A DNA stretch of 64,000 nucleotides from assembly GCA_018268755.1 (NCBI GenBank), contig JAFDVW010000006.1, positions 62,148-126,147 on the forward strand, in the 5' to 3' direction. Numbering within the stretch: position 1 is the first letter of the stretch; every line of letters starts with the position of its first letter. This DNA is from Acidobacteriota bacterium. Lineage in GTDB: Bacteria; Acidobacteriota; Terriglobia; Terriglobales; Acidobacteriaceae. The notes beneath the pieces were generated by a model, which saw only the letters and a list, made by a program, of their open reading frames with translations, did no database searches and was not told the DNA's origin. Shown here piece after piece: positions 31,348-35,592 of this stretch. Both the position numbers and the translations under genes were made by a program.

Positions 31348-32721
31348 ATGATCGTGATGAAATTTGGCGGCACTTCGGTGCAGGACGCCCAAGCCATCAC
31401 CCGCGTGGCTGCGATCGTGAAAGGGCGCCTGGCGCAAAAGCCGGTGGTCGTGGTCAGCGCCATGGCGAAAGTCACCGACCAGCTGTTGAATATGGCGCGG
31501 GCGGCCGGCGCCGGCGACCGCAAAACCGCCCTCAAACTCTGCCGTTCCCTGCAGGAGCGGCACTACAACACAGCTGGCGAACTGCTGGGAACAGCGTTGT
31601 TCACGCAGTTCCACAGCGATCTGGGCGCGGACTTCGAGGAACTCGACGAGCTGCTGCGCGGTATTGTGGCCATCGGCGAATTGACGCCGCGCACCACCGA
31701 CCATGTAGCGGCATTCGGCGAGCGCCTCTCCAGCCGGATTGTGGCGGCGGCTTTTTCCGCCCTGGGCATGGAAAGTTCGCACGTGGACTCGCGCGACTGT
31801 GTGGTCACCGACAACAACTACATGCGGGCGGCCCCTCTGTTCGAGGAAACCAACGAACGCCTGCGCGAACGGGTGAAACCGCTGCTCGAGGAAGGCCGGG
31901 TCGTGGTGATGGGAGGCTTCATCGGCGCCACCAAGGCGGGGGTGACCACCACCATCGGGCGCGGTGGCTCGGATTATTCCGGGGCCATCATAGGGGCCGG
32001 GCTGGACGCGGAGCGCATTGAAATCTGGACCGACGTGGACGGGATGATGACCACCGATCCCAATGTCTGTACGGACGCGCGCCGCATCAAAGTCATCAGC
32101 TTCGATGAGGCGGCCGAGCTGGCCTATTTTGGGGCCAAGGTGCTGCATCCCGCGACCGTGCTGCCCGCCGTCCAGAAAAACATTCCAGTCTACGTATTGA
32201 ACTCGCGCAATCCCAGCTGCGAGGGCACACGCATTACCGCGCGGGCTCCCCATTGCAAGAACTACTTTAAGGCGATTGCGGCGAAAAAGCGCATCACCAT
32301 TGTGGACGTGGCCGCCCCCCGCATGTTGCTGGCACACGGTTTTCTGAAGGCGATCTTTGAGGCTTTCGACCGGCACCAGATCCCGGTGGATGTGGTTTCA
32401 ACCTCCGAGGTAAGCGTCTCGCTGACCGTGGATTCCAACGAATCGATCCCCGCCCTGGCGGCCGACCTGGCCAAGCTGGCGGACGTGAAATATGAAGGCC
32501 GCAAAGCCATCGTGTGCCTGGTGGGCGAGAGCATTCGCGACACGCCGGGGATCGCGGCGCGCGTATTCAGCGAATTGCTGGACGTCAACATCCGCATGAT
32601 TTCCCAGGGTGCATCCGAGATCAACCTGACCTTTGTGATTGAGGAAGATAAGGTACCGGAGGTCATCCGGCGTCTGCACAAGGCCTTTTTCTCGGAACTG
32701 GACCCAGAGGTTTTCGCGTAA
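31348..32721 (+). CDS. lysC: Aspartate kinase
   Basis: The 457-aa enzyme phosphorylates aspartate, the entry step of the cluster. The kinase domain (about 1-290) starts with KFGGTSV (5-11) and holds GFIGATKAGVTTTIGRGGSDYSGA and EIWTDVDGMMTTDP. Two ACT domains (about 300-455) follow, including VDVVSTSEVSVSLTVD and MISQGASEINLTFVIEEDKV, so allosteric control by lysine or threonine is likely. AAGGA lies 10 bp before the ATG. Confidence 0.95.
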   Translation: MIVMKFGGTSVQDAQAITRVAAIVKGRLAQKPVVVVSAMAKVTDQLLNMARAAGAGDRKTALKLCRSLQERHYNTAGELLGTALFTQFHSDLGADFEELDELLRGIVAIGELTPRTTDHVAAFGERLSSRIVAAAFSALGMESSHVDSRDCVVTDNNYMRAAPLFEETNERLRERVKPLLEEGRVVVMGGFIGATKAGVTTTIGRGGSDYSGAIIGAGLDAERIEIWTDVDGMMTTDPNVCTDARRIKVISFDEAAELAYFGAKVLHPATVLPAVQKNIPVYVLNSRNPSCEGTRITARAPHCKNYFKAIAAKKRITIVDVAAPRMLLAHGFLKAIFEAFDRHQIPVDVVSTSEVSVSLTVDSNESIPALAADLAKLADVKYEGRKAIVCLVGESIRDTPGIAARVFSELLDVNIRMISQGASEINLTFVIEEDKVPEVIRRLHKAFFSELDPEVFA

Positions 32722-32821: not shown

Positions 32822-33502
32822 ATGCATCTTCTATTGCTAGGACGAGGCAAGACCGGGGCGCTGGTGGCGGAAATAGCCCGCCAGCGCGGCCATCAGATTA
32901 CCGTGCTGGGCGCAGCGGAAAATCCGCAAGGCTCGGCCCTGACCGAGGACAAGCTGCAAGGCATCGATGCGGTGATCGATTTCACGACTCCGCACGCCGT
33001 CCTGCCCCATATCGAGGCCTGCGTCCGCGCCAAAAAGAACATGGTGGTGGGCACCACGGGCTGGTACAGCGAGATCCCCCGTGTCCAAAAACTGGTCGAA
33101 GCCCAAGGCGGCGCGCTGGTGTTTGGGGCGAATTTTTCCGTGGGCGTGAATCTGTTTTTTGAAATTGCCCGCACCGCCGCCGCCGCCCTGCAGCACCAGT
33201 ATCAGGGGCAGATCTTCGAGCGCCACCACATCCATAAGAAAGATGCCCCGTCCGGCACGGCCGTGGCCCTGCGCAATGTGATCCGGGAGAGCTCGGGGAG
33301 CGAGCTGGAAATCACGTCTTTCCGCGAGGGCGAGGTGGTGGGCTTGCACGAACTTACCCTCGACTCCCCCGCCGACAAGATCTATCTATGCCACGACGCC
33401 AAATCGCGGCACGGCTTTGCCGAAGGGGCGGTGCGGGCTGCGGAATGGCTGGCCGCCAAGCGGGGCTTTTTTGACTTCAAAGACGTCTGGCGCCAGCTGT
33501 AA
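32822..33502 (+). CDS. dapB: 4-hydroxy-tetrahydrodipicolinate reductase
   Basis: The 226-aa enzyme reduces the DapA product to tetrahydrodipicolinate. It has the nucleotide motif GRGKTG (7-12), VVGTTGW (75-81), FGANFSVGVNLF (101-112) and the substrate motif HHIHKKDAPSGTA (135-147). It is shorter than the 240-270 aa typical of E. coli-like DapB, mainly because the segment after the first beta-strand is short, but all catalytic motifs are present. Confidence 0.94.
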   Translation: MHLLLLGRGKTGALVAEIARQRGHQITVLGAAENPQGSALTEDKLQGIDAVIDFTTPHAVLPHIEACVRAKKNMVVGTTGWYSEIPRVQKLVEAQGGALVFGANFSVGVNLFFEIARTAAAALQHQYQGQIFERHHIHKKDAPSGTAVALRNVIRESSGSELEITSFREGEVVGLHELTLDSPADKIYLCHDAKSRHGFAEGAVRAAEWLAAKRGFFDFKDVWRQL

Positions 33503-33565: not shown

Positions 33566-34693
33566 ATGCAACTCCGCGGATGTGGTACAGCATTAGTCAC
33601 ACCGTTTCATCAGGACGGCTCGATCGATGAGCCGGCCCTGCGGAACCTCGTGTCCTGGCAGGTGGAGTCGGGCATCGATTTTCTGGTTCCCTGCGGCACC
33701 ACCGGCGAAACCCCGACCCTTTCCCACGAAGAATGGCTGCGGGTGATCGACATCACCGTCGAAGTCGTGGCCGGGCGCGTGCCCATTGTAGCCGGCGCGA
33801 CCTCCAATTCGACCCACGATGCCGTGGAAAAGGCCAAGCAAGCCGCCGCCCGCCCCGGGGTAAATTACATCCTTACTGCGAACCCCTACTACAACAAGCC
33901 CACGCAGGAGGGGCAATACCGCCATTTTCGCGCCGTGGCCGAGGCCCTGGACAAGCCGGTGGTCCTATACAACATTCCGGGACGCACCGGCGCCAATCTG
34001 GAGCCGGCGACGCTGGCGCGGTTGACCGAGATCCCCAACATCGTCGGCGTGAAGGAAGCCAGCGGCAACATTGCGCAAATTTCCGAAGTTTGCGGCCTGG
34101 TGCCCGAACACTTTTCGGTGCTGGCGGGCGACGATGCCTTTACCCTGCCCTTGATCGCGGTCGGGGGGGTGGGTGTGATTTCGGTGGCCTCCAATGAAAT
34201 TCCGAAAGAGATGGCGGAATTGACGCGTGCCGCCCTGCACAATGACTGGGCCACGGCGCGCAGCCTGAACCGCAAATATCTGCCGCTGATGCAGGCCAAC
34301 TTCATCGAGACCAGCCCCATGCCGGTGAAGGCGGTGCTGGCCATGATGGGGAAAATTGAAGAAGTCTATCGCTTGCCCATGGTCCCCATGCGGCGCGATA
34401 CCCGCTCCAAGCTGCAAAAGATCGCCACCGAAGCGGGAGTCGTCACCAAGCCGGCCGGGAGTTCCTCCGAGGCGGTGGAATTTTTCGTCTACGAGAACTG
34501 GCTGGCCGGGCCCCACAAGGTGGTGTTGCATCGCTCGACCTGCGGGCAGTGCAACCACGGTAAGGGACGTCCTACCGGACATGACGCCAACCATGCCCGC
34601 TGGCATGGCCCCTATGCCACGCTGACGGAAGCGCGCGACGCCGCACATCAGCTGCAAGGCGTGCTGATTCGCAGCGAGTGCAAGTGCATTTAG
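33566..34693 (+). CDS. dapA: 4-hydroxy-tetrahydrodipicolinate synthase with extra C-terminal Cys-rich domain
   Basis: Residues 1-296 are an ordinary DapA: GTTGE (44-48), Tyr135 in VVLYNIPGRTG and the Schiff-base Lys163 in GVKEASG. It condenses pyruvate with aspartate semialdehyde. Usual length is 290-300 aa, but this protein has 375. Residues 303-375 form a separate domain (FFVYENWLAGPHKVVLHRSTC, CGQCNHGKG at 326-334, WHGPYATLTEA, ECKC at 371-374). It resembles small stand-alone Cys-rich proteins of unknown function. The frame is continuous and codon use is unchanged, so this looks like a real fusion. Four Cys (326, 329, 372, 374) could hold a metal. Confidence 0.92.
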   Translation: MQLRGCGTALVTPFHQDGSIDEPALRNLVSWQVESGIDFLVPCGTTGETPTLSHEEWLRVIDITVEVVAGRVPIVAGATSNSTHDAVEKAKQAAARPGVNYILTANPYYNKPTQEGQYRHFRAVAEALDKPVVLYNIPGRTGANLEPATLARLTEIPNIVGVKEASGNIAQISEVCGLVPEHFSVLAGDDAFTLPLIAVGGVGVISVASNEIPKEMAELTRAALHNDWATARSLNRKYLPLMQANFIETSPMPVKAVLAMMGKIEEVYRLPMVPMRRDTRSKLQKIATEAGVVTKPAGSSSEAVEFFVYENWLAGPHKVVLHRSTCGQCNHGKGRPTGHDANHARWHGPYATLTEARDAAHQLQGVLIRSECKCI

Positions 34694-34749
34694 CGGTCTA
34701 GTGTGCGATGGCCGGTCGGGCAAGGAAAACCCGGCCACGCGATTTCCCT

Positions 34750-34755
34750 TATACT
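34750..34755 (+). promoter_or_regulatory. Candidate -10 element of dapD
   Basis: TATACT ends 9 bp before the dapD ATG. The stretch between is pyrimidine-rich with no ribosome site, so the transcript may be leaderless. No clear -35 is seen. Confidence 0.3.
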
Positions 34756-34764
34756 TTTTCTCTC

Positions 34765-35592
34765 ATGTCATCCTTACAATCCGCCATAGAACGCTGCCTT
34801 GCCGCGGGCGAAGCCACGCCGGAAACGCGCCAGACCTTTTTGCAGTTCCGTGACGCCCTGACCCAGGGCAAGATCCGTGCCGCGGAAAAGACCAGCGGCC
34901 AGTGGACGGTCAACACCTGGGTGAAACAGGGCATCCTGCTGGGCTTTCGGCTGGGGGTACTGGCCGAGATGGGCGCCGGCTCCGGACTTTCTTTTGTCGA
35001 TAAGGACACCTTCCCTGCCCGCCACTTTGCGGTAGAGGACCGGGTGCGCGTAGTGCCGGGAGGCTCTTCGGTGCGCGAAGGCGCGTATGTCGCGCCGTCG
35101 GTCATCTGCATGCCGCCCATGTACATCAACGTAGGCGCCTTCGTCGATGAAGGCAGCATGGTGGATTCCCATGCACTGGTGGGTTCCTGCGCGCAGATCG
35201 GCAAGCGCGTCCACTTGAGCGCGGCGGCGCAAATTGGCGGCGTGCTGGAGCCGGTAAATGCGGCCCCAGTCATCATCGAAGACGACGTCCTGGTAGGCGG
35301 AAATTGCGGGGTCTATGAAGGCACACTGGTGCACGCCCGGGCCGTGCTGGGCGCAGGCACCGTATTGACCCGCTCCACGCCGCTTTATGATCTGGTGCGC
35401 GGCGAAGTGTATCGAGCCACGGCCGACAAGCCTTTGGAAGTCCCGGAAAACGCGGTAGTGGTGCCGGGTTCGCGGGCGGTCAAAAAAGGCGTAGCCGCGG
35501 AATGGGGCATTTCCCTGTACACCCCGGTCATCGTGAAATATCGCGATGAGAAGACGGATCGCGGCGTAGAGCTGGAAGACTGGCTGCGGTAG
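34765..35592 (+). CDS. dapD: 2,3,4,5-tetrahydropyridine-2,6-dicarboxylate N-succinyltransferase
   Basis: The 275-aa enzyme transfers succinyl from succinyl-CoA to tetrahydrodipicolinate, so this organism uses the succinylase branch of DAP synthesis. An N-terminal helical part contains [17 protein letters not shown]. It is followed by the left-handed beta-helix with hexapeptide repeats ([45 protein letters not shown]) and a C-terminal cap. The ATG at 34765 gives the family's usual length; a longer frame starts at 34708. dapE and dapF are not in the window. Confidence 0.94.

What the first reader, a model, noticed from the sequence alone, without database searches (positions are those of the whole stretch)
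34463..34690. DapA fused to a Cys-rich domain of unknown function
DapA normally ends near residue 296; here about 75 residues are added with CGQC, WHGPY and CKC motifs. The domain resembles small stand-alone proteins with YENW...HKxxxHRxxCGxCNxGxG, whose role is unknown. Fusion to the first committed lysine enzyme could mean a new metal- or redox-dependent control, or that the small domain works in amino-acid metabolism.
Basis: partly seen in the sequence, partly recalled or inferred. Interest (0 to 1): 0.65.

Follow-up and report, generated by a model that had tools for sequence, protein, structure and literature searches.

The report
Lysine enzyme with added cysteine-rich domain
In one branch of soil Acidobacteriota the enzyme that starts lysine and cell-wall building (DapA) carries an extra, conserved 70-residue probable zinc-binding domain that no domain library knows, which also exists as a small separate protein and whose job is not yet known.

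Summary
Window ORF 33566-34693 (+) is a 375-residue DapA: the core ends near residue 288, then come a short linker and a 70-residue domain (306-375). It is not a readthrough or frameshift artefact: 24 relatives have it in frame, while 36 tail-less relatives of the same family stop at 292-307 residues with no remnant behind. The tail is under purifying selection (pN/pS 0.21; core 0.16; linker 0.50), and the linker varies from about 16 to about 120 residues. AlphaFold2 models the domain confidently (pLDDT 94); Foldseek finds no solved relative, and Pfam, NCBIfam, PHROGs and PADLOC have no family.

Related domains occur alone (72-73 residues, two genomes), inside a 192-residue protein, on a membrane protein, and as decayed copies on two rhizobial plasmids. 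Four Cys and one His are almost invariant, and one stand-alone copy has His where DapA has Cys, so zinc binding is likely. In the genomes sampled the fusion is confined to one Terriglobales family.

DapA's catalytic residues are intact, and lysine-site position 56 is Trp with or without the tail. Best reading: a tethered, zinc-stabilised binding module on the only DapA, partner unknown. New metal or redox control is possible but unsupported.

The parts
33566..34429 (+). DapA (4-hydroxy-tetrahydrodipicolinate synthase) core, residues 1-288
   Evidence: TIGR00674 334 bits over residues 8-288, PF00701 over 3-289; catalytic T44, T45, Y107, Y133, R138, K161 (E. coli numbering) all kept
34430..34480 (+). 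Variable linker, residues about 289-305
   Evidence: 1 invariant column of 21, pN/pS 0.50; pLDDT below 50 at 294-302 in the full-length model; 113-119 aa, Ala/Pro/Glu-rich, in two relatives
34481..34690 (+). C-terminal Cys-rich domain, residues 306-375: strand, strand, long loop, strand, helix, strand
   Evidence: Alignments A1/A3; AlphaFold2 pLDDT 94.4, pTM 0.82
34529..34552 (+). H322 and C326-x2-C329 (HRSTCGQC), first half of the proposed metal site
   Evidence: H322 and C326 invariant; C329 lost in one of 24 verified fusions (G011, CGIY)
34601..34612 (+). W346-H347-G348-P349 motif at the third strand
   Evidence: Invariant in the fusions; W, G and P also invariant in stand-alone and other forms
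34679..34687 (+). C372-K373-C374, second half of the proposed metal site
   Evidence: Both Cys invariant in the fusions; CxxC in one stand-alone relative and HxC in another
31348..32721 (+). lysC, lysine-sensitive aspartokinase 3 by model, first gene of the operon
   Evidence: NF006570 535 bits, cut-off 455; same order in relatives
32822..33502 (+). dapB, directly upstream of dapA
   Evidence: TIGR00036 147 bits, cut-off 122; same order in relatives
34708..35592 (+). dapD, directly downstream of dapA
   Evidence: NF008808 311 bits, cut-off 204; follows dapA in most tail-bearing and many tail-less relatives

Best explanation
In one branch of Terriglobales a small stand-alone-type domain was joined, probably once, to the C-terminus of the cell's only clear DapA, and has been kept by selection since. 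The domain is a compact, zinc-stabilised fold (four Cys and a His placed at the ends of strands 2 and 4) on a flexible leash, so a DapA tetramer would carry four of them. Its most likely work is binding: it recruits DapA to a partner (another enzyme of the pathway, another protein or a nucleic acid) or gathers several DapA tetramers, while the catalytic core works normally. Shown here: the fusion, its conservation, the variable linker, the independent fold (model), the intact active site. Inferred: the zinc, the tetramer, the binding role. Not known: the partner.
For: The domain folds on its own with high model confidence. The linker is weakly constrained (pN/pS 0.50) and grows from about 16 to 113-119 residues in G011 and G004, as expected of a tether. 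Tail pN/pS is 0.21, near the core's 0.16. Catalytic residues are all kept, and nearly every genome has one strong DapA match. A related domain occurs in other settings: alone (G780, G526, and a frame-broken copy in G914), in a 192-aa protein (G508), at the N-terminus of a 290-aa membrane protein (G177), and as decayed plasmid copies, which is how portable binding modules behave. Metal site: 4 Cys per tail on average; H322, C326, C372 and C374 invariant in the fusions; stand-alone G780 has HxC in place of CxC.
Against: No partner was identified and no experiment exists. One fusion (G011) has lost C329. The full-length model rested on a shallow alignment and cannot say whether the tail docks on the core.
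Confidence: 0.45

Rival explanations
1. The tail is a regulatory sensor: zinc supply, or oxidation of the CxxC/CxC pairs, changes its fold and so switches DapA activity or lysine feedback.
For: Conserved Cys/His set; DapA is the first committed step and in many bacteria allosterically inhibited; position 56, whose residue is reported to decide lysine sensitivity (PMC5109050), is Trp here, so the usual prediction fails.
Against: Trp at 56 is just as usual without the tail (34 of 36), and the other lysine-site residues do not clearly separate the two groups. The operon's aspartokinase already matches the lysine-sensitive model. A linker free to grow to about 120 residues is odd for a part that must press on a fixed site.
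Confidence: 0.25
2. The tail is a nucleic-acid-binding module, for example for control of its own mRNA.
For: Basic tails, pI mostly about 9; small zinc domains often bind nucleic acid (general knowledge); no known RNA regulatory element was found in the operon region.
Against: No match to a known nucleic-acid-binding family; the only recurrent Pfam hint, IN_DBD_C, is far below its cut-off.
Confidence: 0.12
3. The tail mainly stabilises the protein or its oligomer and has no partner of its own.
For: Single lineage; tail-less relatives in the same family have intact DapA cores and often the same operon neighbours without it.
Against: The linker does not look like part of a rigid interface, and a related domain is kept in unrelated settings.
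Confidence: 0.13
4. Artefact: a missed stop codon, frameshift or readthrough joins dapA to a separate small gene.
For: Stand-alone homologues do exist.
Against: In-frame fusion in 24 verified genomes and in 45 public contigs from many different MAG projects; linkers of different length all in frame; no conserved internal start codon before the domain (12 of 24 have any candidate, at differing places).
Confidence: 0.03

Closest known systems
DapA / DHDPS (TIGR00674, PF00701)
   Same: Core residues 8-288, all catalytic residues, operon with lysC, dapB and dapD; the best structural matches of the full-length model are all DHDPS.
   Different: The DHDPS structures listed as matches are 288-304 residues long; here about 87 residues follow the core, 70 of them a separate domain. 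Position 56 is Trp, not His, Glu, Lys or Arg, but this is family-wide.
Stand-alone 72-73-aa proteins in G780 and G526, decayed copies on Bradyrhizobium and Mesorhizobium plasmids (unnamed family)
   Same: Same length and motifs: aromatic first strand, HRxxCxxC, glycine-rich loop, WxGP; hhalign probability 98% for G526 and 96% for the Mesorhizobium copy.
   Different: Not fused to an enzyme; the C-terminal pair is CxxC or HxC instead of CxC; the hhalign alignments stop before the C-terminal Cys, so that part is matched by eye.
DUF6233 (PF19746)
   Same: Weak match (E 0.003, below the family cut-off) to the last 15 residues of the rhizobial stand-alone copy, around a CxxC.
   Different: The DapA tail itself does not match; no membership.
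Ada N-terminal zinc domain
   Same: Recalled pattern of Cys, then a helix, then a final Cys pair.
   Different: Rejected.

Membership tests
DapA (4-hydroxy-tetrahydrodipicolinate synthase) | Match to TIGR00674 above cut-off | tested here: met
   334 bits against a cut-off of 206
DapA (4-hydroxy-tetrahydrodipicolinate synthase) | Catalytic Lys161, Thr44, Thr45, Tyr107, Tyr133, Arg138 | tested here: met
   All present in the window protein and in all 60 relatives (E. coli sequence from memory, its letters checked at these positions)
DapA (4-hydroxy-tetrahydrodipicolinate synthase) | Place in the lysine/mDAP operon | tested here: met
   lysC-dapB-dapA-dapD
Lysine-inhibited DHDPS | His or Glu at position 56 (PMC5109050) | tested here: not met
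   Trp, in tail-bearing and most tail-less relatives; Lys or Arg, the mark of insensitive enzymes, is absent too, so sensitivity cannot be predicted
Zinc-binding domain (general) | Conserved Cys/His ligand set | tested here: met
   H322, C326, C372, C374 invariant, C329 lost once
Zinc-binding domain (general) | Bound zinc with tetrahedral geometry | not testable with these tools
   Model coordinates not released; needs ICP-MS or a structure
Stand-alone YENW/HRxxCxxC/WxGP family | Detectable homology over the domain | tested here: met
   Profile E 6e-25 (G780) and 2e-9 (G526); hhalign 96-98% for the Mesorhizobium and G526 proteins
Ada N-terminal zinc domain | Profile or fold similarity | tested here: not met
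   hhalign probability 1%; no Ada in the Foldseek list
Any Pfam, NCBIfam, PHROGs or PADLOC family (tail) | Match above curated cut-off or at E 0.001 | tested here: not met

The most novel reading that the evidence does not exclude
The tail is the first described member of a new family of small zinc modules that give lysine synthesis in these bacteria a control or placement not known for any DapA, by tethering the enzyme to a partner or by sensing metal or redox state.
Probability: 0.3. Interest if true: 0.72.

Novelty: new variant of a known kind. Interest (0 to 1): 0.5.

Why it matters
DapA is one of the best-studied enzymes of amino-acid synthesis and a drug and herbicide target; a conserved extra domain on it, in about 40% of the sampled genera of a soil family, points to an unstudied way to control or place the pathway. 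It also puts an uncharacterised small-protein family, seen here as lone 72-73-residue genes, next to a measurable enzyme: the effect of the domain can be assayed by removing it from DapA. No paper on such a fusion was found in the open-access library searched, which lacks most subscription journals.

Tried and rejected
Readthrough, frameshift or split gene: rejected. Conserved internal start that would make the tail a separate product: not conserved. Remnant of the domain behind the stop in tail-less relatives: the one weak match (G506) is unrelated sequence. Ada-like zinc fold: rejected. GIY-YIG-like fold: several weak hits in viral predicted structures (probability about 0.2 at best), not significant. 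Loss of the lysine-binding site in tail-bearing DapA: not seen. Known RNA element in the operon region: none. Viral origin: four scans of viral contigs and three phage tblastn searches gave no real relative. A hand-made consensus of the stand-alone form, used as a query, added nothing beyond the rhizobial copies and a chance hit in G208. G599: only a degraded, broken-frame match.

Full report
What is there. The ORF at 33566-34693 (+) encodes 375 residues. The first 288 are a normal DapA (TIGR00674, 334 bits). Then come a linker and a domain of 70 residues, FFVYENWLAGPHKVVLHRSTCGQCNHGKGRPTGHDANHARWHGPYATLTEARDAAHQLQGVLIRSECKCI. No library knows this domain: nothing above cut-off in Pfam or NCBIfam, nothing in PHROGs or PADLOC, and no PDB sequence even with a profile. 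It occurs once in the window's genome. The operon is lysC-dapB-dapA-dapD; lysC matches the lysine-sensitive aspartokinase model.

It is a real fusion. Thirteen relatives from whole genomes and 45 public contigs, mostly soil and peat MAGs of Acidobacteriota (several named Candidatus Sulfotelmatobacter, Terriglobales), encode the domain in frame directly behind dapA. I read dapA from 60 genomes of the same family: 24 have the tail; 36 do not and end at 292-307 residues, with no remnant downstream. Linkers differ in length yet stay in frame; in G004 and G011 they are 119 and 113 residues, rich in Ala, Pro and Glu. Over 253 pairs pN/pS is 0.16 for the core, 0.50 for the linker and 0.21 for the tail; pS is near 0.7, so these ratios are rough.

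Where it occurs. In a draw of 300 genomes of the family, 82 genomes in 32 of 79 genera had a match. Most have the open-frame length of a fused DapA, but not every one was read; known exceptions are G177 (a membrane protein), G599 (degraded) and G623 (cut by a contig end). G569 has two copies on two contigs, perhaps mixed strains. Evenly drawn searches of the phylum (396 genomes) and class (399) found fused DapA only in this family. On the DapA core tree 23 tail-bearing sequences form a supported group (SH-aLRT 95); G004 and G011 fell among tail-less ones, but the tree with all tails held together has a higher likelihood and the AU test does not reject it (p 0.82). One origin is the simplest reading, not proven.

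The same domain elsewhere. A profile with a more divergent copy added (A3) found stand-alone genes: 73 aa in G780 (another family of the class; GTG start behind AAGGAGG) and 72 aa in G526 (ATG start behind AAGGAGG). G914 holds a similar gene with a frame break, and G508 a 192-aa protein with the domain inside. G177 has it at the N-terminus of a 290-aa protein with one likely membrane span, after pilin-like genes. Two rhizobial plasmids carry decayed, unannotated copies. The homology of G526 and the Mesorhizobium copy is supported by hhalign at 98 and 96%.

Structure. AlphaFold2 gives pLDDT 94.4 and pTM 0.82: strands 2-7, 14-19 and 40-46, helix 49-58, strand 64-67 of the 71-residue model. Foldseek finds no solved structure with E below 1 and only weak viral hits. 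The Cys pairs follow strands 2 and 4, which could bring them together, but the coordinates were not released and I did not measure this. The full-length model is poorer (pLDDT 78, pTM 0.68, 25 close sequences); it shows the same tail elements and a linker below 50, and cannot decide on docking. Its best PDB matches are all DHDPS.

Metal site. In the fusions H322, C326, C372 and C374 are invariant and C329 is lost once (G011). In G780 the final CxC reads HxC, in G526 CxxC, in G914 CxC. A Cys-to-His exchange at one position and persistent pairs speak for zinc; this is inference.

Function. The catalytic residues are all present and nearly every genome has one strong DapA match, so the fused protein is very likely the working enzyme. 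Position 56, where His or Glu marks lysine inhibition and Lys or Arg insensitivity (PMC5109050), is Trp in all 24 tail-bearing and 34 of 36 tail-less proteins: the tail does not go with a change there. A long, loosely constrained leash and the domain's varied settings favour a binding module over a part that presses on the enzyme, but a sensor cannot be excluded. I give binding 0.45, metal or redox control 0.25, stabilisation 0.13, nucleic-acid binding 0.12 and artefact 0.03.

Verdict. Observation confirmed; interpretation partly supported. A new domain variant of a known enzyme, with an unnamed small-domain family behind it.

Noticed in passing
L192:5462-5734 (G526): Stand-alone 72-aa member of the domain family lies between a PIN-domain gene (PF01850) and a coaD-like gene, with a strong ribosome-binding site.
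   Followed up: partly
L114:8557-9429 (G177): 290-aa protein with the domain at its N-terminus and one likely membrane span, directly after genes that look like type IV pilus minor pilins.
   Followed up: partly
L191:4710-5288, - strand (G508): 192-aa protein of unknown family that holds a divergent copy of the domain; its final Cys pair is reduced to one Cys.
   Followed up: no
L063:3992-4132 and L078:2971-3207: Unannotated, decayed copies of the stand-alone gene on Bradyrhizobium and Mesorhizobium plasmids; intact chromosomal copies in rhizobia are likely but could not be searched.
   Followed up: partly
window 33734-33736 (DapA W57, equal to E. coli position 56): Trp at the position usually used to predict lysine feedback, in 58 of 60 DapAs of this family, with or without the tail; lysine sensitivity of these enzymes is unpredictable.
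   Followed up: partly
L140 (G011): Fused tail that lost the second Cys (CGIY) and gained three residues in the loop, beside a 113-residue linker.
   Followed up: no
L112 and L113 (G569): Two tail-bearing DapA copies on two contigs of one MAG, probably strain mixture.
   Followed up: no
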